IMG/VR virus record: IMGVR_UViG_3300021405_000018
Span: 1 to 52,064 of that record
Direction: 5' to 3' (one strand)
Length of the DNA: 52,064 nucleotides
Source of the DNA: a virus
Shown here in pieces: positions 20,134 to 38,010 of this stretch. The number at the start of each line of letters is the position of its first letter. Within the stretch, counting starts at the first letter, position 1. The notes beneath the pieces are model-generated. The model was given only the letters and a program-made list of their open reading frames with translations. It was not told the origin of the DNA and ran no database searches. The translations under genes and the position numbers were made by a program.

Positions 20134-21292
20134 CCGTCTCGATCAACCCACTCCTCTTCAGGCCCTTGACTATCTCATCGAAGTCTCGCGGCTTGGGGAG
20201 GCTACCCCGGATGTAAGCGAACGCCTCTCCTATCTCTACACCCTGTACCCCATGCCGCGCAATGAAGTCAACCAGTCTGTCGGAAACGTTGCTTGTCTCC
20301 GTCTTCCCGATACGGTCAAAGATTGACAGAAGCGTGGACTCAAGGTTTGATACGTGGTGCTCAGCCGTTTGAAGGTCCTCTCTGCTGATAACGAGGGAGT
20401 CATCCCTCGCTGCAGAAAGAACCATTGCGAGCTTATGGAGGTGAGAAGCCTTGCGCGAGTAGAAGCCGCCAAGTCTAGAGTCGTCCTTCCCCTTGCCGTG
20501 GAGCGCACAATGTGCGTCGTACCAATCGATGCCCCACTGCACAGCATCAGGAGCAAGAGTGTACTCACCCTCAAGCCGTCCGATGGCATTGAGGTCGTCC
20601 AGCAAATACCGTTTGAGTGTGTTGTGCTCACGCCATTTCTCCTTTGAGATTTGCAGGCCAGGGTACATGATATTCTGGCGCTTCTCGTCCGCGTAGACCC
20701 ACATGATCCGGGAGACGAGGCCCCCCTCGATCATGTATGTGGGTATGTTGTCACTGATCCATGATGGGGTTGTGCAGCCGATGAGGTTGAGGAAGGGGTG
20801 TTCTACCTGCTCACTGCCATTCCCCTTCGTTGCCTTGTCGAGGGGGCCGCAGTCCCATAGGGTGGTGAGCATGTCCATCATCTGGCGGTCGTCAGTCGAT
20901 ATGAGGTTGCCGAGTTCGCCCGATTCGATGGTAAGGGAGTACGTCTCGACCGTGTTTCCGGGGGAATACTCCACCATCCTGACTGCTTTCTCGAAAGAAG
21001 ACACCAGCGCCTGCCATGTGGTGACGTTGGGTCCCATGTGGATATCGTCCACCTTCCGTAGGAGGCGCATTGCAAGACCCGCATTGGTCGATTTGGCGAT
21101 GACCCCCGGTGGTGCAACGAGGACCACGAACATGTTGGGGTACCACTGGAATGTAAGCTGATCAAACCACACCTTCCTCTGGAGTGCGCCTGCAATGGCA
21201 GAAACGCCTGACCAGAATAGAATGTGATCAGGCGCTTCACCTACATGCCCCAGTTCGATAAACCCCTGGAGCCAATTTGATAGTTTCCTCAT
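20069..21292 (-). CDS. DUF3987-type primase/helicase ATPase (407 aa)
   Basis: A longer frame starts with TTG at 21307; I choose ATG 21292, which overlaps the polymerase stop (ATGA) and has GGGGG upstream. The protein has a Walker A loop of the form APPGVIAKST near residue 60, the DUF3987 signature LTFQWYPNMFVVLVAPPG, and later LISTDDRQMMDMLTTLWDC and a C-terminal winged-helix-like part (LVDFIARHGVQGVEIGEAFAYI). The family accompanies phage primases and is thought to be the replicative helicase or primase-helicase. Last gene of the leftward operon. Confidence 0.75.
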   Translation of the reverse strand: MRKLSNWLQGFIELGHVGEAPDHILFWSGVSAIAGALQRKVWFDQLTFQWYPNMFVVLVAPPGVIAKSTNAGLAMRLLRKVDDIHMGPNVTTWQALVSSFEKAVRMVEYSPGNTVETYSLTIESGELGNLISTDDRQMMDMLTTLWDCGPLDKATKGNGSEQVEHPFLNLIGCTTPSWISDNIPTYMIEGGLVSRIMWVYADEKRQNIMYPGLQISKEKWREHNTLKRYLLDDLNAIGRLEGEYTLAPDAVQWGIDWYDAHCALHGKGKDDSRLGGFYSRKASHLHKLAMVLSAARDDSLVISREDLQTAEHHVSNLESTLLSIFDRIGKTETSNVSDRLVDFIARHGVQGVEIGEAFAYIRGSLPKPRDFDEIVKGLKRSGLIETVTVAAKVVLKKPAVKPDLANL

Positions 21293-22023
21293 TGACAATC
21301 CCCCCAACTCTTCTCACTCATTTTCAATCCAACGGGGATGACCAATGGTTCCGGGTAGGGGATGACGATGGTGGCTTCTCGCTTGACGGCTTCTGCGTAG
21401 TCCCCATCGCACTGAATGGGCCACTGCATAGTAAGGCTGTCGTGTACCTGCAACAGAATGTCCACCAGAGGTAGGTTATGGTCGATATTGACATATGCGT
21501 GATTGATGAGGATGCCTACTGTTGATTGGGGAACCCAGGCTACCATACGGTTAAGGATGTTACCCTCTATGCGTTCATAGAACTTCTTTTTGTACCCGAA
21601 AGCATTGGAGACAGTGCCTGTGCGTATGCAACGCTTAACGAACGCATCCTGCCAGCGCTTAATCTCGGGAAACATTTCAAAGTACCAATGCTGGATGCGC
21701 TCCACCTCCTTGACCAGTAGCCCACACTGCCCCGCAATCTCTGGTGCCTTACCCAGGTAGTTCGTAGCGTGGCATAGCTTCTTGAACGCATAGTAGCGCG
21801 GGTCCTCCGTACCATCAGAGCGCTTCTTCTGAATGCTGTTGTCATGGTAGTACTCTCGGGCCACCTGGAGGTATGGTTTTTTCCCCTCCCGGAATAAAGC
21901 CTTCATCCCTTTGCAGTCGCTCTCCCATGTCACTATCCGAAGGTCTGCGCTGTCCAGGTCCAGGTCGGCCATGACCATCCCCTCGTCCGGTATGAACATC
22001 GTACGGATATTGGGCATCGGCAT
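21289..22023 (-). CDS. DNA polymerase family A, polymerase (C-terminal) part of a split gene (244 aa)
   Basis: Contains all three family A polymerase motifs: motif A at 20-29 (DLDLDSADLR), motif B at 76-91 (R-x4-K-K-x6-NYLG) and motif C at 192-195 (QVHD). The ATG at 22023 has its own ribosome site (AGGAGAAGGCTATG), lying inside the HTH gene. The expected upstream part is encoded separately at 22234-23883. The two frames are in the same phase (stop to stop 945 nt), so about 70 codons of inserted sequence separate them. The products must associate to make an active enzyme, or the split is a defect. Confidence 0.85.
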   Translation of the reverse strand: MPMPNIRTMFIPDEGMVMADLDLDSADLRIVTWESDCKGMKALFREGKKPYLQVAREYYHDNSIQKKRSDGTEDPRYYAFKKLCHATNYLGKAPEIAGQCGLLVKEVERIQHWYFEMFPEIKRWQDAFVKRCIRTGTVSNAFGYKKKFYERIEGNILNRMVAWVPQSTVGILINHAYVNIDHNLPLVDILLQVHDSLTMQWPIQCDGDYAEAVKREATIVIPYPEPLVIPVGLKMSEKSWGDCQ

Positions 22024-22237
22024 AGCCTTCTCCTAGCATTAGGTAATCGAGGGTGACATCAAGGACACGGGCCAGTTCAAGGAGTGCCCAGTAGCCTGGG
22101 TGGACACCCATGTCCTCGTAGAGGTGCATCGATGTGGGATGCAGACGGGCTCGCTTGGCTAGGACATGGCGCAGGATTCCACGCTCCTCCCGTAGCCGTC
22201 GCAGGCGGGCACCAAAGGTTTCGAAGTCGTTGTTCAT
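21842..22237 (-). CDS. XRE-type HTH protein inserted within the DNA polymerase gene (131 aa frame)
   Basis: The ATG overlaps the stop of the polymerase N-part (ATGA). Residues 6-68 (FGARLRRLREERGILRHVLAKRA ... YEDMG ... LLELARVLDVTLDYLMLGE) are an XRE helix-turn-helix domain. The remaining 60 residues overlap the polymerase C-part in another frame and look like out-of-frame translation, so the natural protein may be meant to end near residue 72 but has no stop there. A second XRE protein lies at 35289-35519. Its position inside a split polymerase is unusual. Regulator of replication genes, or a mobile insertion, are both possible. Confidence 0.65.
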   Translation of the reverse strand: MNNDFETFGARLRRLREERGILRHVLAKRARLHPTSMHLYEDMGVHPGYWALLELARVLDVTLDYLMLGEGYADAQYPYDVHTGRGDGHGRPGPGQRRPSDSDMGERLQRDEGFIPGGEKTIPPGGPRVLP

Positions 22238-23883
22238 AGCTTTTCCCTTCCATCCGTGATGTTTTGCAGGTTCATTCCCGAGCCGAAGGCGTCTGCGCTA
22301 CTGGAGAACCTGAAAGTGATCGCCCCATTGATATTGTAGCTACAGTGGATACGTCCGTCGTATCCAATTGCAGTGGCCTTAAGTGCGTTCGAAGCGAGGG
22401 TTTCGCAAGACCTAAACGTTGCGATACGATCAGTGATAGGCCTAAGAAATACCTCTCGTTGTCCAATTTTCTCAAGCGCTTCATCGTCACAACAGAGTGC
22501 CTTTGTCTTCCGATTGCGGATAGGCGTTGCGCCCATCTCGTCGTAGAAGAAGGTACACATCTGCTTCGGACTCTTCGGGTTGAGCGGATAGCCGACCATC
22601 TCCGTAATCTCTGCTTCAAGCTGCTTCGCATGGTCCTTTAACTCCTTCAACATTGCTTGGCGTCGGGCGTTGTCAACACGAACCCCACGCGCCATCGTCC
22701 TAAGCACAGGACCAAAGAGAGATTGCTGGAAGTCGTGCGGTCCACGTAGACCCATTCTATCGACCACCGACTGTAGAACGGTATCGCATTCATACGTTCG
22801 AATACAGTCCTCACAGTTGTATGCCCAATACTTGTCTTCATCCTGGTCTGCTCCCTTGTCCCACTCCTTGCCGTCATCCTTCCAGTAGACGTACCACTCG
22901 CAATACATCGAGGCAATGAAGTCGAGGGACTTCTGCATGCCGGGGAAGCACGTGTGCTGGGCTACCATTGTATCTCGAACTTGACGCGGAACCCAGTGCC
23001 AGTGCCGAAGTATATACTGCGCATCGTAGATGAAATTTTGCCCAACGGTGAGTACGTTTGGGTGTGTGAGTAGCCGATACAGCAGCCAAACAATCTCAGA
23101 TTCATCGTCTTCGTTCCAGTATCCCTGCGGTCGTTCGACACAGAGAAATGGCATACAGAGTGCTTCATGATTACTCCACGCTATACCAAGGCACGCAATG
23201 TGCCCGGCTCGGGTTTCAATGTCACATGCCAGTTTCAGGGCTCCTGCTTCAGCCTTGTGATATAGCATGTCAAGACAGTCCCGCACCTGGGACATTGTAG
23301 GCCGTACCTGAAACGCCCATCCGGGTCGATGAGGAACCCGTTGCACACAAGAGGCCGCTCTCCGCAAGTCTTGCACGACAATCGGCTTAAGTGTCCATTG
23401 GCGCAAGACAGCGGCGGGGTGATAGGTAGGTAGCACGATCCCATGTTCCGTCTCCAGGGTACTGCCTCGCCACTTCGCAACGCTATCGAGACCAGTGAGT
23501 GCCCACAGGGCAGTGTTACCGAGGGCGATGATGACGGTCGGACGTACGGCTCTAATTTCAGCAAGTAGTAGAAGGTGCCCCCGAGCGACGTGAGGATGCA
23601 CAGGCCTGCCACGCACCATGACAAAGCCTCCTGCCAGTCCCGCATGCTGCTTCTCCTTCGTGGTGGGCATCCAGAGGTCCATCTTGTTGCCTGGGGGCCG
23701 CTCCCGACAGACGTTCGTGATCCGCACCGAGGCACGGGCGATGCCAACGGCGGAGAGCATCTGGTCCAGGAGTTGGCCGCTGTAGCCCACAAAGGGCTCA
23801 CCAAGGCGCTCCTCGTCCACGCCGGGGGCTTCACCCACTATCATGATGCGGGCGTCCATAGGGCCTATGCTACCGACTGTCAT
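22234..23883 (-). CDS. UDG-like domain fused to DNA polymerase family A exonuclease part (549 aa)
   Basis: Residues 10-165 resemble family 4-type uracil-DNA glycosylases: GEAPG at 17-21, G-x-P-F-V-G-x-S-G-x-L-L, TNVCRERPPGN, and YHPAAVLR at 154-161. The usual iron-sulfur cysteines are mostly missing, so it may be non-catalytic. Residues 215-370 hold a 3'-5' exonuclease: DIE at 221-223, GQNFIYDAQYIL, YNCEDCIRTYE. The fusion of a UDG-like domain to a phage DNA polymerase is known from SPO1. The frame stops at NLQNITDGREKL, exactly where family A enzymes continue to the palm motif A, which is encoded separately at 21289-22023. Confidence 0.85.
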   Translation of the reverse strand: MTVGSIGPMDARIMIVGEAPGVDEERLGEPFVGYSGQLLDQMLSAVGIARASVRITNVCRERPPGNKMDLWMPTTKEKQHAGLAGGFVMVRGRPVHPHVARGHLLLLAEIRAVRPTVIIALGNTALWALTGLDSVAKWRGSTLETEHGIVLPTYHPAAVLRQWTLKPIVVQDLRRAASCVQRVPHRPGWAFQVRPTMSQVRDCLDMLYHKAEAGALKLACDIETRAGHIACLGIAWSNHEALCMPFLCVERPQGYWNEDDESEIVWLLYRLLTHPNVLTVGQNFIYDAQYILRHWHWVPRQVRDTMVAQHTCFPGMQKSLDFIASMYCEWYVYWKDDGKEWDKGADQDEDKYWAYNCEDCIRTYECDTVLQSVVDRMGLRGPHDFQQSLFGPVLRTMARGVRVDNARRQAMLKELKDHAKQLEAEITEMVGYPLNPKSPKQMCTFFYDEMGATPIRNRKTKALCCDDEALEKIGQREVFLRPITDRIATFRSCETLASNALKATAIGYDGRIHCSYNINGAITFRFSSSADAFGSGMNLQNITDGREKL

Positions 23884-27885: not shown

Positions 27886-28031
27886 TCGGTGCTCTCCTGA
27901 CAGGTACAGTACTCAAACTCAGGGCAGGTTTCATCTACCGTTAGGAAGTCCCAATCAGCACAGTAGTGTGCATGCTCTCCTGTCAGGACCCGGCCATGCT
28001 CTGCAATACAGTCGAATTCGAAGTCTGTCAA
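27882..28031 (-). CDS. Small Cys-rich protein (49 aa)
   Basis: TTG start fused to the ATPase stop (TTGA) with GGAG upstream; stop fused to the next GTG. Product starts MTDFEFDCIAEHGRVLTG and ends TCPEFEYCTCQESTE, with five cysteines that may bind zinc. Coupled overlaps at both ends support a real gene. Confidence 0.55.
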   Translation of the reverse strand: MTDFEFDCIAEHGRVLTGEHAHYCADWDFLTVDETCPEFEYCTCQESTE

Positions 28032-33325: not shown

Positions 33326-33494
33326 CCTTACCCTCCATAAAGGCGTTGAAGGCGTCCTTGCACGATGGGCAGAGGTGCTTTTCCTCGTTCCACTCGAAGA
33401 GATAGAAGGATGTCCACCGTAGGCGAGCAAACCAGCCTACATCGGTCTTTTCACCACATCTATCACAGGTGTAGACCTGTCTCGTAGCCATCAT
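33291..33494 (-). CDS. Zinc-ribbon protein (67 aa)
   Basis: CDRCGEKTDV near the N-terminus and CPSCKDAF later form a Cys4 ribbon with the Trp/Tyr-rich strand RLRWTSFYLFEWNEEKHL between. The start overlaps the SPFH stop; another frame overlaps the next gene by 35 nt. Confidence 0.65.
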   Translation of the reverse strand: MMATRQVYTCDRCGEKTDVGWFARLRWTSFYLFEWNEEKHLCPSCKDAFNAFMEGKDVSNPAGKSST

Positions 33495-34339
33495 TTTCCC
33501 ACCTGAATCAGGGGGATAGCGCCCCCAAGCATGTATTGCGGATACTCCCCATTCCACTTCTCGACCTTCAGCTTCTCGATGATGGCAGGGTTGGCTTCAA
33601 GCGACTTGCCGAGGAGGTCGTTGGCCTGTGCCTGATTACGCGCAGCTTCGAGGTCGGCCTGACTCTGGATGACGCGCTTCTGCGAGTCGAACTGGGTCTG
33701 CTTCAGCTCGTTCTGTGCCTGGATGGACTTCTGCTGGGCACTCGCTGCTGCCTCGATGGCGTCGTTGTATTGCTGACTGAAGTCAAGGTTGAGCAGGGCT
33801 GTGCTGACGACGGTGATGCCGTAGGGCGCTAGGCGGGACTTGAGGTTATCGGTGATTTTCTGGTTCACCGAGTCCCGTTGGGTCACTAGCTGGTTCGTGT
33901 CGAACTGCGAGATGGTTGCCTTCGCAACGTCCACCATGGTCGGCTGGATGATCCGGTTGGCAGGGTCGTTGGAGAGGTCCCGATAGACACTGACGGCGGC
34001 AGCAGGGTTGACGCGGTAGTTCAGGGCGAAGTCCACCGTGACGACCTGTTTGTCGTTACTGGCTGCTGCCAGCTTCTCGTCCACACGGGCCGTACCTACA
34101 TAGACGGGGTGGACCGTATCGCGTACAGGCATGCGGAAGTGCAGTCCCGCAGGCATCACCTCGGGGGATAGGCCGTCGAAGTTCTGCACGACGCCCACAT
34201 AACCGGGCTCCACGGTGACGACCGGGCGCATCGAGTACCCCATGATGAGGAGGATCAGGACAATGATGGTCCCGACCGTCCACTTGACTACCTTCAGGAA
34301 TGATGCATCATCCCTACTCAACTCTTGCTGCTGTGCCAT
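33491..34339 (-). CDS. SPFH/prohibitin-like membrane protein (282 aa)
   Basis: One N-terminal membrane helix (residues 18-36, KWTVGTIIVLILLIMGYSMRP) then the SPFH domain: VEPGYVGVVQNFDGLSPEVM, PAGLHFRMPVRDTVHPVYVG, LNYRVNPAAAVSVYRDLSND, and a long coiled region (AIEAAASAQQKSIQAQNELKQ). This is the HflC/HflK/stomatin/prohibitin architecture, which builds rings around membrane proteases such as FtsH. Phage-encoded copies are uncommon; altering host proteolysis is a reasonable hypothesis. Confidence 0.8.
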   Translation of the reverse strand: MAQQQELSRDDASFLKVVKWTVGTIIVLILLIMGYSMRPVVTVEPGYVGVVQNFDGLSPEVMPAGLHFRMPVRDTVHPVYVGTARVDEKLAAASNDKQVVTVDFALNYRVNPAAAVSVYRDLSNDPANRIIQPTMVDVAKATISQFDTNQLVTQRDSVNQKITDNLKSRLAPYGITVVSTALLNLDFSQQYNDAIEAAASAQQKSIQAQNELKQTQFDSQKRVIQSQADLEAARNQAQANDLLGKSLEANPAIIEKLKVEKWNGEYPQYMLGGAIPLIQVGK

Positions 34340-34363: not shown

Positions 34364-34448
34364 TGGTCCCCCACCCAGGAATCGAACCTGGCTGGCCAGA
34401 GGCAACGGGGTTACGGCCCGCCCCACATCCATAGTGGTCTAATGAGGG
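34364..34448 (-). tRNA. tRNA-Tyr (anticodon GTA) with encoded CCA
   Basis: On the minus strand: acceptor CCCTCAT/GTGGGGG (two wobbles), discriminator A then CCA, D-arm CCAC-TATGGAT-GTGG, anticodon arm GCGGG-CCGTAAC-CCCGT (GTA), class II variable arm GCC-TCT-GGC, T-arm CCAGG-TTCGATT-CCTGG; 85 nt with CCA. The GTA anticodon and long variable arm fit tRNA-Tyr. Odd points: C instead of T before the anticodon, and 4 nt rather than 2 between acceptor and D-stem. The D-arm overlaps one arm of a 17-bp inverted repeat. Confidence 0.7.
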
Positions 34449-35288: not shown

Positions 35289-35519
35289 TTAGTCCTCCAG
35301 ACCGACAAGGTAATCAATACTGCATTCAAGTACTATAGCCATCTTGATGATGGATCGCAAGCTGGGGTAAACCCCACGATTCTCGTAGGCCGTGATCTGG
35401 CATTGATGAAGGAAGCATTCGGCTGCAAACCTCTCAATGCCGTAACCACGGCGCATACGCTCGGCCTTGAGGCGGGTCCCAAGAGCCCCAAAGGCCTCCT
35501 TACGTTTATACGGCTTCAC
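35289..35519 (-). CDS. XRE-type HTH regulator (76 aa)
   Basis: GTG start fused with the Ro60 stop. AFGALGTRLKAERMRRGYGI, RFAAECFLHQCQITAYENRG, SLRSIIKMAIVLECSIDYLV matches the five-helix XRE fold, length typical of a stand-alone domain. Co-transcribed with Ro60 and the ncRNA cluster, so it may regulate that unit. Confidence 0.7.
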   Translation of the reverse strand: MKPYKRKEAFGALGTRLKAERMRRGYGIERFAAECFLHQCQITAYENRGVYPSLRSIIKMAIVLECSIDYLVGLED

Positions 35520-36964
35520 GCCTGGGCCTCCACAGCCCGGATGAAGTCAACTGAGGCTTCGCTGAAGCCATCAATATGCGTCCACTTTCCGTAACCAATC
35601 CCGTTCTTTGCGCTTGCCACGTTGATGAGGTATGCCCGACCACATCCAGGTTCCGCCAGCTTCGGGGATTGCGCATGATCAACAGCACAATCCTGCTCGT
35701 CCGTGACAACGACGATGCGGTCATACATTTCACGCTCGTTGATGAAGTCGAGCATGGGTTTGAGGAAGATGCCTCCTCCACCAAGCACTCTGTAGGACTC
35801 ATGGAATGCTGCAACGAGAGCCATTCCGTGCCTAGCTGGTACAGATTTCGTGGCGTGTGTTCGTGTGCGGTCGCTTCCTGCTGTTGCATAGACTACTGCC
35901 TCCTCACATTGTTCGCGCAGGATTGCGCACAGGGCGGCACCAGCGTCGATACGATTCAGGGTGGACTTGCTCGACAGCATGCTGCCCATCGAGCCCGACA
36001 CGTCGAGGACGATCAGCGTCCTCCCTTCAAGTTTCGGACCGTCCTGGAGTCCTTGCACCATCGCACCATCGAGCACAGCTTCGAACTGAGGGGCCTCGCG
36101 GGCTGCGCTGATGAAACGGAACGGGAGGACCTTGCTTGCGCCTTTACGGGCCTGGATGGCTTGTTCAATGAGGCCACGGTCCACCCCCAGTTCAGTCATC
36201 TTGCGCAGGTTCCGAAGGAGGGCCATATAGGGCAGCTTCCCCTCACGCAACATCACTTCGAATACATCTTTACTGCCACCTTCATCCCCCTTAGCTGCGC
36301 TAAGGCCCACTTCCCATGTCTCGGGCGTCTTGAGGGTGCGGTCAACGATGCGCCGATACAACTGTTCTTCAGGTGTAGTGCCCGCAGTGCTGCTCAACCG
36401 GTTACCAATGCCTTGCGCACGTTGATGCTTCGTGCCGTAGGCACCACTGACCGACTTCGGCTTCCCATGCACCATGAACAGAACGTCGCGCAGCTTGATA
36501 GGCGAGTCGGCCTTCTCCCATTTCGAGAACTGATACTCATCGAACTTGCGGAAGGCACGGGCAAGGCCGACCTTAACCTGCTTCGCAAGGGGACACTTAC
36601 CGTCCTTCCAGTAGATGGCCATGAATTCGGCTATCTCGTCGGGCCGTTGGATCACCCTAGCGAGGGTATCTCCAACCAGTTTGCCTCTCGCACATCGAGC
36701 AAGCGCCCGCACGAGCAGCAACGGTACGTGCCGAAGGTGTTGCTGTTCCCTTGCCTCAATGGCGAGTTGTGCAACAGTTGCAGGGTCGCATGCTGGCACC
36801 AGCTCTGCGATCCGACTAGCGATTGAGCCGCCTGATTCATACGCTTCGCCCTCCCAAAGCATGCACGACAGCACCGTGCGGCGTAGTTCTTCAATCGGGG
36901 TAAGGTGGAAGGCCTCTGCGCCGCCATGGGTACGAGGGCCTTCTGGATGGTTGGTACTGGACAT
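35516..36964 (-). CDS. rsr: Ro60/Rsr orthologue (TROVE + vWA) (482 aa)
   Basis: The first 300 residues form the HEAT-like TROVE ring (SCMLWEGEAYESGGSIASRI, LAIEAREQQHLRHVPLLLVR, PYMALLRNLRKMTELGVDRG, KVLPFRFISAAREAPQFEAV). Residues 313-482 are a vWA domain with DVSGS at 321-325 and a later D422. The TD usually seen after GG is replaced by GGGGIF at 395-400, so the metal site may be altered. Ro60 binds Y RNAs and misfolded RNAs and in bacteria works with PNPase. Directly upstream lies a 1-kb RNA cluster. Ribosome site AGGAG at about 36971-36975. Confidence 0.85.
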   Translation of the reverse strand: MSSTNHPEGPRTHGGAEAFHLTPIEELRRTVLSCMLWEGEAYESGGSIASRIAELVPACDPATVAQLAIEAREQQHLRHVPLLLVRALARCARGKLVGDTLARVIQRPDEIAEFMAIYWKDGKCPLAKQVKVGLARAFRKFDEYQFSKWEKADSPIKLRDVLFMVHGKPKSVSGAYGTKHQRAQGIGNRLSSTAGTTPEEQLYRRIVDRTLKTPETWEVGLSAAKGDEGGSKDVFEVMLREGKLPYMALLRNLRKMTELGVDRGLIEQAIQARKGASKVLPFRFISAAREAPQFEAVLDGAMVQGLQDGPKLEGRTLIVLDVSGSMGSMLSSKSTLNRIDAGAALCAILREQCEEAVVYATAGSDRTRTHATKSVPARHGMALVAAFHESYRVLGGGGIFLKPMLDFINEREMYDRIVVVTDEQDCAVDHAQSPKLAEPGCGRAYLINVASAKNGIGYGKWTHIDGFSEASVDFIRAVEAQA

Positions 36965-36984
36965 TACTGGTACTCCTAACTAAC

Positions 36985-37111
36985 TTCAAGCCCCCGAAGG
37001 GGAGGGAACAGACATACAGGGACAAGACCTCATAAGAGGCCCCAGGATTCGAACCTGAACGCACCCGAAGGTGAGTATCAACCGATGTAACCCTGTACTA
37101 CACCACTTAAA
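36985..37111 (-). ncRNA. Y-RNA-like stem-loop with tRNA-mimic, unit 1 (next to rsr)
   Basis: Minus strand: lower stem TTTAAG/CTTGAA (37106-37111 with 36985-36990), upper stem TACAGGG/CCCTGTA (37091-37097 with 37015-37021). Inside, in order: a UUCG-capped hairpin (37062-37073), a canonical T-arm TCAGG-TTCGAAT-CCTGG (37042-37058), and directly next a 6-bp hairpin GGCCTC-TTAT-GAGGTC (37026-37041) that looks like an acceptor stem closed by a loop. No clear D-arm. A further CCCC-TTCG-GGGG hairpin sits in the 3' internal loop. Ends about 20 nt before the rsr ATG. Confidence 0.5.
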
Positions 37112-37234
37112 CTTGACTGGCGACGCCTTACGGGCGTCAATCGAGCGAAGATTTACCGTTTGCTTGAGTCTACGCTGTTGACCCACTCGACACGTAACGG
37201 CTTGTGGCTAGGGTATCGGCTTCCCCTTTGCAAC
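37112..37234 (-). other. Spacer inside the ncRNA cluster
   Basis: Holds a perfect 6-bp hairpin GACGCC-CGTAA-GGCGTC (minus strand) at about 37122-37138 and no convincing ORF or tRNA. It lies between the first two RNA units; the rest is unassigned. Confidence 0.4.
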
Positions 37235-37359
37235 TCTGCGCCCCGACACAAGGGCCTACCGAGAGTACGACGGTACTGCTGCAAATCTTTGGCGGGAACA
37301 AACGAGGACGGAAGGATTTCGACCTAAACGAAGTAACCGTACTCTTCACCACGCAAACC
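37235..37359 (-). ncRNA. Y-RNA-like stem-loop, unit 2
   Basis: Minus strand shares the 5' block GTTTGCGTGxTGAAGA with unit 3. Upper stem GAGTACG/CGTACTC (37338-37344 with 37263-37269) is perfect. The lower stem is weak (TGCG/CGCA near 37235-37240). Inside is an anticodon-like arm TTCG-TTTAGGT-CGAA (37318-37332) but no canonical T-loop. Boundaries are uncertain. Confidence 0.35.
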
Positions 37360-37461
37360 TTGGCCTCATTGCGGGGAGGTCCATCCTCGTAAGACAAAAA
37401 GGAGTCACCAGGGCAGAGAGTTGGGGAAGACCTGCCACTGAGTCGTGTGACTCCGTAAAAC
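37360..37461 (-). other. Spacer inside the ncRNA cluster
   Basis: Contains a GGAGTCAC...GTGACTCC inverted repeat (37400-37407 with 37446-37453) around a loop of about 38 nt, on either strand, and no tRNA or convincing ORF. Possibly another, simpler stem-loop unit. Confidence 0.35.
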
Positions 37462-37530
37462 TGGCGGGACCCCACGGAATTGAACCGGGGTAGGAGATTC
37501 GCGAAAATGCTCCTAGTGCCAACACGTCCC
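37462..37530 (-). ncRNA. tRNA-like element with encoded CCA
   Basis: Minus strand: GGGAC/GTCCC acceptor (5 bp, then mismatch), T-arm CCCGG-TTCAATT-CCGTG with one mismatch and canonical T-loop, discriminator G, then CCA (37462-37464). The middle is a 6-bp hairpin TAGGAG/CTCCTA with a 13-nt loop and a mini D-like GTGTTGGCAC. No clear anticodon. It is therefore not an ordinary tRNA; it may be a degenerate tRNA or part of the Y-like set. Overlaps the 3' end of unit 3 by 2 nt. Confidence 0.4.
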
Positions 37531-37667
37531 AGTGTTGCGGCAACAAGCGATACGACGAACGTAAGTGCTCTAACCAACTGAGCTACATCCTTTCGGATGA
37601 CGGGACTCGAACCCGCGACCTCTCGCTTAGCAGGCGAAGTATGTCGTATCTTCAGCACGCAAACTGG
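37529..37667 (-). ncRNA. Y-RNA-like RNA with permuted tRNA mimic, unit 3 (best example)
   Basis: Minus strand, 5' to 3': lower stem CCAGTTTGCG (37658-37667) pairs with CGCAAcACTGG (37529-37539, one bulged C); internal loop TGCTGAA opposite GCTTGTTGC; upper stem GATACGAC/GTCGTATC (37643-37650 with 37549-37556). Inside: anticodon-like arm TCGC-CTGCTAA-GCGA (37623-37637), T-arm GCGGG-TTCGAGT-CCCGT (37600-37616), hairpin CATCC-GAAA-GGATG (37586-37599) and D-arm GCTC-AGTTGGTTA-GAGC (37567-37583). T-arm before D-arm with a closed acceptor is the order of a circularly permuted tRNA, as described for YrlA-type Y RNAs. Confidence 0.6.
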
Positions 37668-37764
37668 TTGGGGCAACAAGCAAGACGGCAGACAGTCGTA
37701 GCCAGGACTAGCCTGACATACGCCCGAATGGTGAGCGATGTAAGCCATCTCTTCAGCACCCAAA
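37668..37764 (-). ncRNA. Y-RNA-like stem-loop, unit 4
   Basis: Immediately 5' of unit 3 on the minus strand. Lower stem TTGGG/CCCAA (37759-37763 with 37668-37672), same internal loop TGCTGAA opposite GCTTGTTGC, upper stem GAGATGGC/GCCGTCTT (37744-37751 with 37682-37689). Compared with unit 3 the lower stem differs by a compensatory C-G to G-C change (TTGCG/CGCAA there). Inside: a long hairpin near 37716-37741 and a T-stem-like TCAGG-CTAGT-CCTGG without the T-loop consensus. Confidence 0.5.
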
Positions 37765-37845
37765 GGTGCAGGGTCTTTGCACGAGCCCACATTAGCACAT
37801 CCCCGCGAGGTCGGATGCCTTGTGGTACAAAGGCCCTGCCCTTTG
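37761..37845 (-). ncRNA. Stem-loop with acceptor-like hairpin, unit 5
   Basis: Minus strand: CAAAGGGCAGGG (37834-37845) pairs with CCCTGCaCCTTTG (37761-37773), 12 bp with one bulge. Inside: GCCTT-TGTACCAC-AAGGC next to CATCC-(10 nt)-GGATG (37798-37817), the same acceptor sequence as unit 3. Its 3' end overlaps unit 4's 5' end by 3-4 nt, so the exact borders are uncertain. Confidence 0.35.
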
Positions 37846-37870
37846 AAGGCTGGGGACCCTTCCTGTTATC

Positions 37871-37922
37871 GAGTGGAAGGAACAAGCATCTCGCAAGCGC
37901 CGAGTGTAGGTGTCATCCACTC
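37871..37922 (-). ncRNA. Small stem-loop, unit 6
   Basis: Minus strand GAGTGGA/TCCACTC (37916-37922 with 37871-37877), an inner arm CTCG-GCGCTTG-CGAG (37890-37904), and the block GCTTGTTCC in the 3' internal loop, like the GCTTGTTGC of units 3 and 4. Possibly a shortened member of the set. Confidence 0.3.
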
Positions 37923-37934
37923 AGGCTTGAAGGG

Positions 37935-38005
37935 TGGGGCAACGGTTCGTTCCACTGGCCTGTTAGCGGGACGGGGGTACCATAGCAGTCAGCAGCGTTG
38001 CCCCA
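37935..38005 (-). ncRNA. Stem-loop, unit 7 (most upstream)
   Basis: Perfect 10-bp stem TGGGGCAACG/CGTTGCCCCA (37996-38005 with 37935-37944) around about 51 nt. A second pairing CATAGC/GCTATG nearby would make a pseudoknot or an alternative fold. Lies 6 nt from the end of the gene at 38011-38409. Confidence 0.3.
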
Positions 38006-38010
38006 TAAAG

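What the first reader, a model, noticed from the sequence alone, without database searches (positions are those of the whole stretch)
35516..38010. Phage-encoded Ro60 with an adjacent tandem array of Y-RNA-like RNAs
Seen: a 482-aa TROVE-vWA protein (DxSGS at 321-325), and directly upstream on the same strand about 1 kb of gene-free DNA with four to seven consecutive long stem-loops. Units 1 and 3 hold a T-arm fused to an acceptor-like hairpin closed by a tetraloop, and unit 3 has a canonical D-arm after it. Known: bacterial Ro60 binds Y RNAs, is often encoded beside them, and the YrlA family mimics tRNA. Inference: this is a multi-copy Y RNA system carried by a lytic phage, possibly redirecting host PNPase or sparing phage RNA.
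Basis: partly seen in the sequence, partly recalled or inferred. Interest (0 to 1): 0.95.

Follow-up and report, generated by a model that had tools for sequence, protein, structure and literature searches.

The report
Phage Ro60 with permuted-tRNA Y RNAs
A bacterial virus carries its own Ro60 RNA-binding ring protein beside a tandem set of at least four small Y RNAs, and the best-preserved one, like many relatives in phages and bacteria, is a whole tRNA cut open and re-joined in a different order, anticodon arm included, which suggests that these particles fish for the cell's tRNA-handling enzymes.

Summary
ORF 35516-36964(-) is a Ro60/TROVE-vWA protein by HMM, MIDAS motif and predicted fold. 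The ~1 kb upstream, same strand, encodes at least four Y RNAs (36999-37115, 37289-37361, 37534-37667, 37668-37768). Folding energy alone is not better than chance; the proof is comparative: 31 pairs, 92% paired, 24 with changes on both sides over 38 relatives. Such arrays sit beside Ro60 in most of 98 phage and 80 bacterial loci, 293 of 294 phage matches on the Ro60 strand. Phage Ro60 with YrlA-type RNA was already known, so this is not a new system. About half of the D-arm-bearing units have an anticodon arm (7-nt loop, U33, purine 37); the rest tend to keep the anticodon stem as junction helix. The variable loop keeps the 15-48 tertiary covariation. Rearranged to normal order, 60 of 62 are called tRNAs, none after random rotation. 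Phage arrays mix isotypes more than bacterial ones. The window's main unit is 93% identical in its core to tRNA-Asp but has another anticodon loop. Function (PNPase tether, or decoy for tRNA-attacking defences) is untested.

The parts
35516..36964 (-). Ro60/TROVE-vWA protein, 482 aa, MIDAS D321-x-S323-x-S325
   Evidence: Pfam TROVE 4e-15; PHROG 850 3.5e-39; AlphaFold model pLDDT 86, best Foldseek hits all Ro60
36999..37115 (-). Y RNA unit 1: Ro60-type stem, hairpin at the anticodon-arm place, T-arm, acceptor hairpin with UUAU loop, no D-arm; ends 34 nt before the Ro60 start codon
   Evidence: CM R1 41.7 bits, E 4e-11, not in training set; counterpart in L022 2760-2879 with a different but still paired acceptor hairpin
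37289..37361 (-). Y RNA unit 2: short, Ro60-type stem and a loop, no tRNA-like module
   Evidence: CM R1 38.4 bits, E 4e-10
37534..37667 (-). Y RNA unit 3: complete permuted tRNA on a Ro60-type stem
   Evidence: Rfam YrlA 43.5 bits; CM R1 127.8 bits (in training set); covariation
37622..37638 (-). anticodon-arm-like hairpin of unit 3, UUCGC-CUGCUAA-GCGAG
37600..37616 (-). T-arm of unit 3 (GCGGG-UUCGAGU-CCCGU), preceded by variable loop AGGUC at 37617-37621
37586..37599 (-). acceptor-like hairpin of unit 3 (CAUCC-GAAA-GGAUG)
37567..37585 (-). positions 8-25 (D-arm) of unit 3: UA-GCUC-AGUUGGUUA-GAGC
37668..37768 (-). Y RNA unit 4: Ro60-type stem with its own inner hairpins
   Evidence: CM R1 33.1 bits, E 3.5e-10 in local unfiltered search
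37460..37533 (-). tRNA-like cloverleaf, probably a degenerate tRNA, between Y RNAs (close relative L022 has a real tRNA-Pro between its Y RNAs)
   Evidence: T-arm motif; fold of 37390-37533 z -2.42; L022 tRNA-Pro 2686-2762
37773..38008 (-). further stem-loops upstream of the array, unassigned
   Evidence: strong stem GGGGCAACG/CGUUGCCCC, but z -1.42 and no model support

Best explanation
It is a phage-borne Ro60-Y RNA particle. SHOWN by sequence: a Ro60-type ring protein; at least four tandem Y RNAs on its strand, each with the conserved bulged stem that marks Y RNAs at Ro60 loci; in unit 3 a tRNA-like module that is a whole tRNA circularly permuted (anticodon arm - variable loop - T-arm - acceptor closed by a tetraloop - D-arm), opened between D-arm and anticodon arm and grafted on the Ro60 stem. 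INFERRED: the Y RNAs are transcribed and bind the phage Ro60 through the stem; because the acceptor ends are sealed by a loop the module cannot be charged, so it presents a permanent, uncharged tRNA look-alike that docks host proteins which recognise tRNA. Most likely use (about 45%): a tether that brings a host RNA-processing enzyme such as PNPase to RNAs held by the ring, as in D. radiodurans. Next (about 30%): bait or competitor for tRNA-cutting defence nucleases and tRNA-modifying enzymes, the role that would best explain anticodon arms and mixed isotypes. The confidence given is for the identity of the system, not for the function.
For: Protein family and fold. Four co-oriented units. Covariation: 92.3% of cells paired against 35-47% in slid controls; both Ro60-type stems vary on both sides at all 12 pairs. 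293 of 294 matches in 98 viral loci on the Ro60 strand; 228 in 80 bacterial loci. T-arm+acceptor descriptor: 124 same strand, 5 opposite, 1.8 expected in viral loci. Anticodon-arm hairpins with a 4-5 nt variable loop: 36 of 74 viral and 28 of 70 bacterial units, 1.7 and 1.5 expected. Position 15-48 covariation G-C 101, A-U 12, Fisher p 2e-10. Reordered units called tRNA in 60 of 62, rotations in 0 of 62. The module is known to be a circular permutation of tRNA in Salmonella YrlA (PMC11472068); the PNPase tether in D. radiodurans and the competitive-inhibitor idea are from PMC7790460. The TROVE gene of crAss001 is an early gene (PMC10136315).
Against: No expression or binding data; no promoter or terminator pattern stands out. 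Unit 3 is below Rfam's gathering score. Folding energies are ordinary. Anticodon triplets often do not match the body type (unit 3: Asp-like body, GCU loop), so decoding-specific mimicry is not general. Bacterial loci have the same arrays, so a purely anti-defence role in phages is not implied. The counts come from related sequences and are not independent events; units entering the reordering test were already chosen for tRNA arms.
Confidence: 0.85

Rival explanations
1. Decoy panel: the phage array presents tRNA look-alikes of several isotypes to absorb or compete for host tRNA-cutting defence nucleases (anticodon nucleases, retron or toxin RNases), with Ro60 only stabilising them.
For: Anticodon arms with U33 and purine 37 in about half of D-arm-bearing units; phage arrays mix D-arm types: 22 of 68 phage units against 6 of 69 bacterial units are not the common type, p 6e-4; 15 of 18 against 4 of 14 multi-unit loci hold more than one type. 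D-arm types map to Glu and Leu in real tRNAs. Phage tRNAs are known to defeat tRNA-cutting defences (PMC11555353, PMC10264068). A competitor role of YrlA was proposed for Salmonella (PMC7790460).
Against: Half of the D-arm-bearing units have no full anticodon loop; Leu-like units lose it while several keep the variable arm. The anticodon triplet rarely matches the body. In Salmonella YrlA was not cut by the RecA-dependent nuclease, which fits a competitor but not a sacrificial substrate. Bacteria keep the same arrays.
Confidence: 0.3
2. The stretch is a tRNA gene cluster or its decayed remains, not Y RNAs.
For: Rfam tRNA 21 bits overlaps unit 3; related records annotate tRNAs there; a real tRNA-Pro lies between Y RNAs in L022.
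Against: The order of arms is permuted; ARAGORN finds no tRNA in the array; the Rfam tRNA model finds none in the record; the outer Ro60-type stem covaries at all 12 pairs; units without any tRNA arm share that stem.
Confidence: 0.03
3. The structures are leader elements that regulate Ro60 translation rather than separate RNAs.
For: Unit 1 ends 34 nt before the Ro60 start.
Against: Up to about eight similar units per locus; some viral loci carry units downstream of Ro60 (L032, L038, L059); conserved tRNA tertiary contact.
Confidence: 0.07

Closest known systems
Bacterial Rsr-YrlA particles (Salmonella rsr-yrlBA-rtcBA; Rfam RF02553; PDB 6CU1)
   Same: Ro60 ortholog beside Y RNAs; module with T-, acceptor and D-arms in permuted order on a long 5'/3' stem
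   Different: Carried by a phage without rtcBA among the genes examined; below the RF02553 gathering score; many units per array; anticodon arm and variable loop retained in unit 3
Phage Ro60/TROVE genes (CcrColossus, crAss001, Rhizobium phages, Thermus phage phiLo structure 9L5Y)
   Same: Same protein family, mostly 36-47% identity; gene-free stretch with Y RNAs next to it in many
   Different: Their arrays were mostly unannotated or partly annotated as tRNAs; the window phage belongs to another, podovirus-like group
RYPER of Deinococcus radiodurans (Rsr - Y RNA - PNPase)
   Same: Ro60-like ring with a Y RNA that could tether another protein
   Different: No test of PNPase binding; the D. radiodurans mode is shown experimentally only there
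Phage tRNA genes that counter tRNA-cutting defences
   Same: Phage-encoded RNA resembling tRNAs of several isotypes
   Different: Here the tRNA is permuted, its acceptor ends are sealed by a loop and it sits on a Ro60-type stem, so it should not act in translation

Membership tests
Ro60/Rsr (TROVE-vWA) proteins | TROVE domain above curated cut-off | tested here: met
   PF05731 56.4 bits, cut-off 23
Ro60/Rsr (TROVE-vWA) proteins | C-terminal vWA domain with MIDAS | tested here: met
   DxSxS invariant; vWA strands in the model; PF25045 26.4 bits is just under its 27.7 cut-off
Ro60/Rsr (TROVE-vWA) proteins | Helical-repeat ring fold of Ro60 | tested here: met
   Foldseek: phage phiLo Ro60 9L5Y, Ro autoantigen 1YVP, D. 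radiodurans Rsr 2NVO, prob 1.00, TM 0.56-0.69; rmsd 6-9 A, so domain placement is uncertain
Ro60/Rsr (TROVE-vWA) proteins | Binds Y RNA | not testable with these tools
   needs protein and RNA
Rfam RF02553 YrlA | Score at or above gathering cut-off 69 bits | tested here: not met
   43.5 bits over the full model 1-114
YrlA-like Y RNAs (broader sense) | T-arm, looped acceptor and D-arm in permuted order on a Ro60-type stem next to a Ro60 gene | tested here: met
   unit 3. Units 1, 2 and 4 lack part or all of the module
tRNA genes | Arms in tRNA order with free acceptor ends | tested here: not met
   only after reordering is unit 3 called a tRNA
RYPER | Y RNA tethers Ro60 to PNPase | not testable with these tools
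   no binding data

The most novel reading that the evidence does not exclude
Phage Ro60 loci encode panels of complete, circularly permuted tRNA look-alikes of different isotypes, anticodon arms included, displayed on Ro60 as baits for tRNA-cutting or tRNA-modifying host enzymes: an RNA-protein counter-defence built from re-wired tRNAs.
Probability: 0.25. Interest if true: 0.9.

Novelty: new variant of a known kind. Interest (0 to 1): 0.66.

Why it matters
Phage Ro60 genes are common (82 records in the phage collection; 480 confirmed matches in IMG/VR) but have no known role. Showing that most examined loci hold arrays of permuted tRNAs gives a concrete handle: the module should be modified like tRNA, may bind tRNA-specific enzymes, and can be deleted cleanly. 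It also shows that several annotated phage tRNAs next to Ro60 are really Y RNAs, which matters for studies of phage tRNA function, and extends bacterial Y RNA mimicry from part of a tRNA to all of it.

Tried and rejected
Single-sequence folding energy as evidence: z-scores not significant. Promoter and terminator scan: nothing above chance. Anticodon matched to D-arm type as a general rule: true for single cases (Glu CUC in the Xanthomonas phages L006/L021, Gln CUG in L059) but not overall. Long variable arm as a mark of Leu-like units: 6 of 10 against 38 of 127, p 0.075, because my hairpin test also catches shortened anticodon arms. Recent capture of tRNA genes: most units are no closer to real tRNAs than tRNAs of different isotypes are to each other (median 0.79 against 0.77); only the window unit (0.93) and a few others stand out. 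The key Y RNA papers (Chen 2014, Sim and Wolin 2018, Sim 2020) are not in the library, so whether an anticodon arm in Y RNAs has been reported before could not be checked. RF01119 sR32 at 27953-28010 looks like chance.
Full report
What was checked. The window is a 52,064-base virus record. The ORF at 35516-36964 on the minus strand is a Ro60 protein: Pfam TROVE 4e-15, vWA_Ro60 7e-6 (just below its curated cut-off), PHROG 850 over its whole length. Residues D321, S323 and S325 are invariant in alignments of 12 and 33 relatives. An AlphaFold model (pLDDT 86, pTM 0.80) finds only Ro60 proteins among its best full-length matches, the first being two entries annotated as TROVE/Ro60 (9KOP, and 9L5Y from Thermus phage phiLo), then the Ro autoantigen, human Ro60 and D. 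radiodurans Rsr.

The RNA array. Rfam's YrlA model matches 37534-37647 on the same strand over its full length with 43.5 bits (E 1.9e-6 for the whole window), below the gathering score of 69. A simple descriptor (T-arm followed by a hairpin) run over loci with related Ro60 genes found 124 places on the Ro60 strand in 101 viral loci against 5 on the other strand and 1.8 in shuffled sequence, and 112, 9 and 2.2 in 80 bacterial loci. From 38 complete units of phages and bacteria I made an alignment and counted the named structure: 92.3% of cells paired (35-47% when the partner is slid by one to three columns), 24 of 31 pairs with changes on both sides, covariation score 0.66 against 0.20 in shuffles. 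The two outer helices, which carry the motif shared by all units (GGUGGUGUAG ... GGUUACUUC on the 5' side, CGCCUGUUCCC on the 3' side), vary on both sides at all 12 pairs. A covariance model from this alignment finds four units in the window, all on the Ro60 strand and nowhere else: 36999-37115, 37289-37361, 37534-37667 and 37668-37768. The third is in the training set; the other three are not. Folding energies of the single sequences are unremarkable, so the case rests on comparison, not on stems seen in one sequence.

A close relative. Contig L022 (Ro60 74% identical, contig of nearly the same length) has units at 2205-2279, 2489-2626, 2760-2879 and 2882-2986 and a real tRNA-Pro at 2686-2762 between them. 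Its counterpart of unit 1 has the acceptor hairpin ACAUGC-GCAA-GCAUGU where the window has GGCCUC-UUAU-GAGGUC: almost every pair differs and pairing is kept (sequences).

How general. The model gives 294 matches in 98 viral loci, 293 on the Ro60 strand, and 228 in 80 bacterial loci. Among the 150 best viral matches, 45 of 78 loci hold two or more; for bacteria 50 of 75. Caulobacter phage CcrColossus has about eight. So tandem Y RNAs are the usual company of this branch of Ro60, in phages and bacteria alike, and the window is a member rather than an exception. Several features annotated as tRNAs in phage records lie on these units (for example Xanthomonas phage 10KY502B 'tRNA-Thr', Brevundimonas phage Gurke 'tRNA-Ser', CcrColossus 'tRNA-Gln'; against 23, 24, 79).

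The module is a whole tRNA. In unit 3 the order is: Ro60-type stem, hairpin UUCGC-CUGCUAA-GCGAG, five bases AGGUC, T-arm, acceptor hairpin closed by GAAA, UA, D-arm, Ro60-type stem. The first hairpin and the five bases are what lies before the T-arm in a tRNA: anticodon arm and variable loop. Tests: (a) a hairpin of five positions with at least four pairs, a 7-base loop, U at 33 and a purine at 37, placed 4-5 bases before the T-arm, occurs in 36 of 74 viral and 28 of 70 bacterial D-arm-bearing units against 1.7 and 1.5 in shuffled upstream sequence; its inner pairs change on both sides. (b) The tertiary pair 15-48 of tRNA covaries between D-loop and variable loop: G-C 101, A-U 12, and A15 takes U48 far more often than G15 does (p 2e-10); the neighbouring positions 44-47 show no such switch. 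(c) U8 is present in 134 of 137 non-redundant units. (d) Put back in tRNA order, 60 of 62 units are called tRNA by ARAGORN; random rotations of the same letters 0 of 62; these units had been chosen for their arms, so this shows consistency, not an independent rate. (e) Units without an anticodon arm keep the anticodon stem as the helix that joins module and Ro60 stem: 36 of 75 against 14.7 (at most 23 in 500) with partners exchanged, whereas units with the arm show no excess, 15 against 12.8. There are thus two ways of opening the same tRNA: in the anticodon loop, which is how I read the RF02553 consensus structure, or between D-arm and anticodon arm, as in the window. Circular permutation of Salmonella YrlA relative to tRNA is known (PMC11472068); in the papers I could read the mimicry is described for D-, T- and acceptor arms (PMC8394870). 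I did not find the anticodon arm described, but the primary papers were not available.

Isotypes. Real tRNAs of three bacterial genomes show that the D-arm UCGUCUAG belongs to tRNA-Glu and UGGCGGAA..GGUAGACGC to tRNA-Leu, while UAGCUCAG is shared by many. In phage loci 22 of 68 non-redundant units have one of the rarer types, in bacterial loci 6 of 69 (p 6e-4), and 15 of 18 multi-unit phage loci but 4 of 14 bacterial ones hold more than one type. Two Xanthomonas phages have a Glu-like D-arm with anticodon CUC, and L059 a Gln-like D-arm with CUG, but in general the anticodon does not follow the body. The loops are rich in U36-A37: 28 of 35 viral and 17 of 31 bacterial units have U36. The core of the window's unit 3 is 93% identical to a tRNA-Asp(GUC) among the three bacterial genomes (the Caulobacter sequence printed is the near-identical one), the closest of all units and above the 84% below which 95% of tRNAs fall against other isotypes, yet its loop reads GCU, not GUC.

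Mechanism. Established elsewhere: D. radiodurans Rsr is tethered by Y RNA to PNPase; a competitor role of YrlA against a tRNA-cutting nuclease has been proposed but not tested (PMC7790460). Established here: parts, order, strand, covariation, tRNA-like tertiary signature. Inferred: expression, binding, docking of host tRNA-binding proteins. The looped acceptor cannot be charged, so a role in translation is unlikely. I rate a tether for a host RNA enzyme about 45%, bait or competitor for tRNA-directed enzymes about 30%, other RNA quality-control or stability roles the rest. The TROVE gene of crAss001 is expressed early (PMC10136315), which fits host take-over or counter-defence, though crAss-type loci gave weak or no matches to this model.

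Known or new. Phage Ro60 and YrlA in phages have been mentioned in print (PMC7824862; PMC7765460, citing Sim and Wolin 2018; from memory, Chen et al. 2014 listed phages). What appears new is the array as a rule, the complete permuted tRNA with anticodon arm, and the mixed isotypes in phages. Hence: new variant of a known kind.

Noticed in passing
L005:9994-10386(+), IMGVR_UViG_3300012005_000004: RNase P RNA-like sequence (RNaseP_bact_a, 72.9 bits, gathering 100, E 3e-20) next to a tRNA cluster in a viral contig with Ro60.
   Followed up: no
L007:6372-6717(+) and L008:6752-7007(+), Brevundimonas jumbo phages: Permuted (two-piece) tmRNA above gathering score a few kb downstream of Ro60; not annotated in the records.
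   Followed up: no
window 33491-34339(-); L013:6625-7323(+): An SPFH/band-7 gene lies within a few kb downstream of Ro60 both in this phage and in crAss001.
   Followed up: no
window 21289-22023(-) and 22234-23883(-): DNA polymerase A in two ORFs matching successive parts of one PHROG profile with a ~210-base gap, and a uracil-DNA glycosylase domain fused to the first piece: split gene, intron or frameshift.
   Followed up: no
window 34364-34448(-): ARAGORN calls a tRNA-Tyr, but the Rfam tRNA model finds no tRNA in the record at E 0.001.
   Followed up: no
L006:2792-2859, L007:2796-2870, L009:2155-2222: Features annotated as tRNA-Thr, tRNA-Ser and tRNA-Gln overlap Y RNA units; such annotations near Ro60 are probably wrong.
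   Followed up: partly
anticodon-like loops of Y RNA units in many loci: Strong preference for U36 followed by A37 A38 (45 of 66 have U36), the context of the t6A37 modification, without matching isotype.
   Followed up: partly
L022:2686-2762(+): A complete tRNA-Pro(UGG) gene sits between two Y RNA genes in the closest relative; the window has a degenerate tRNA-like cloverleaf at 37460-37533.
   Followed up: partly
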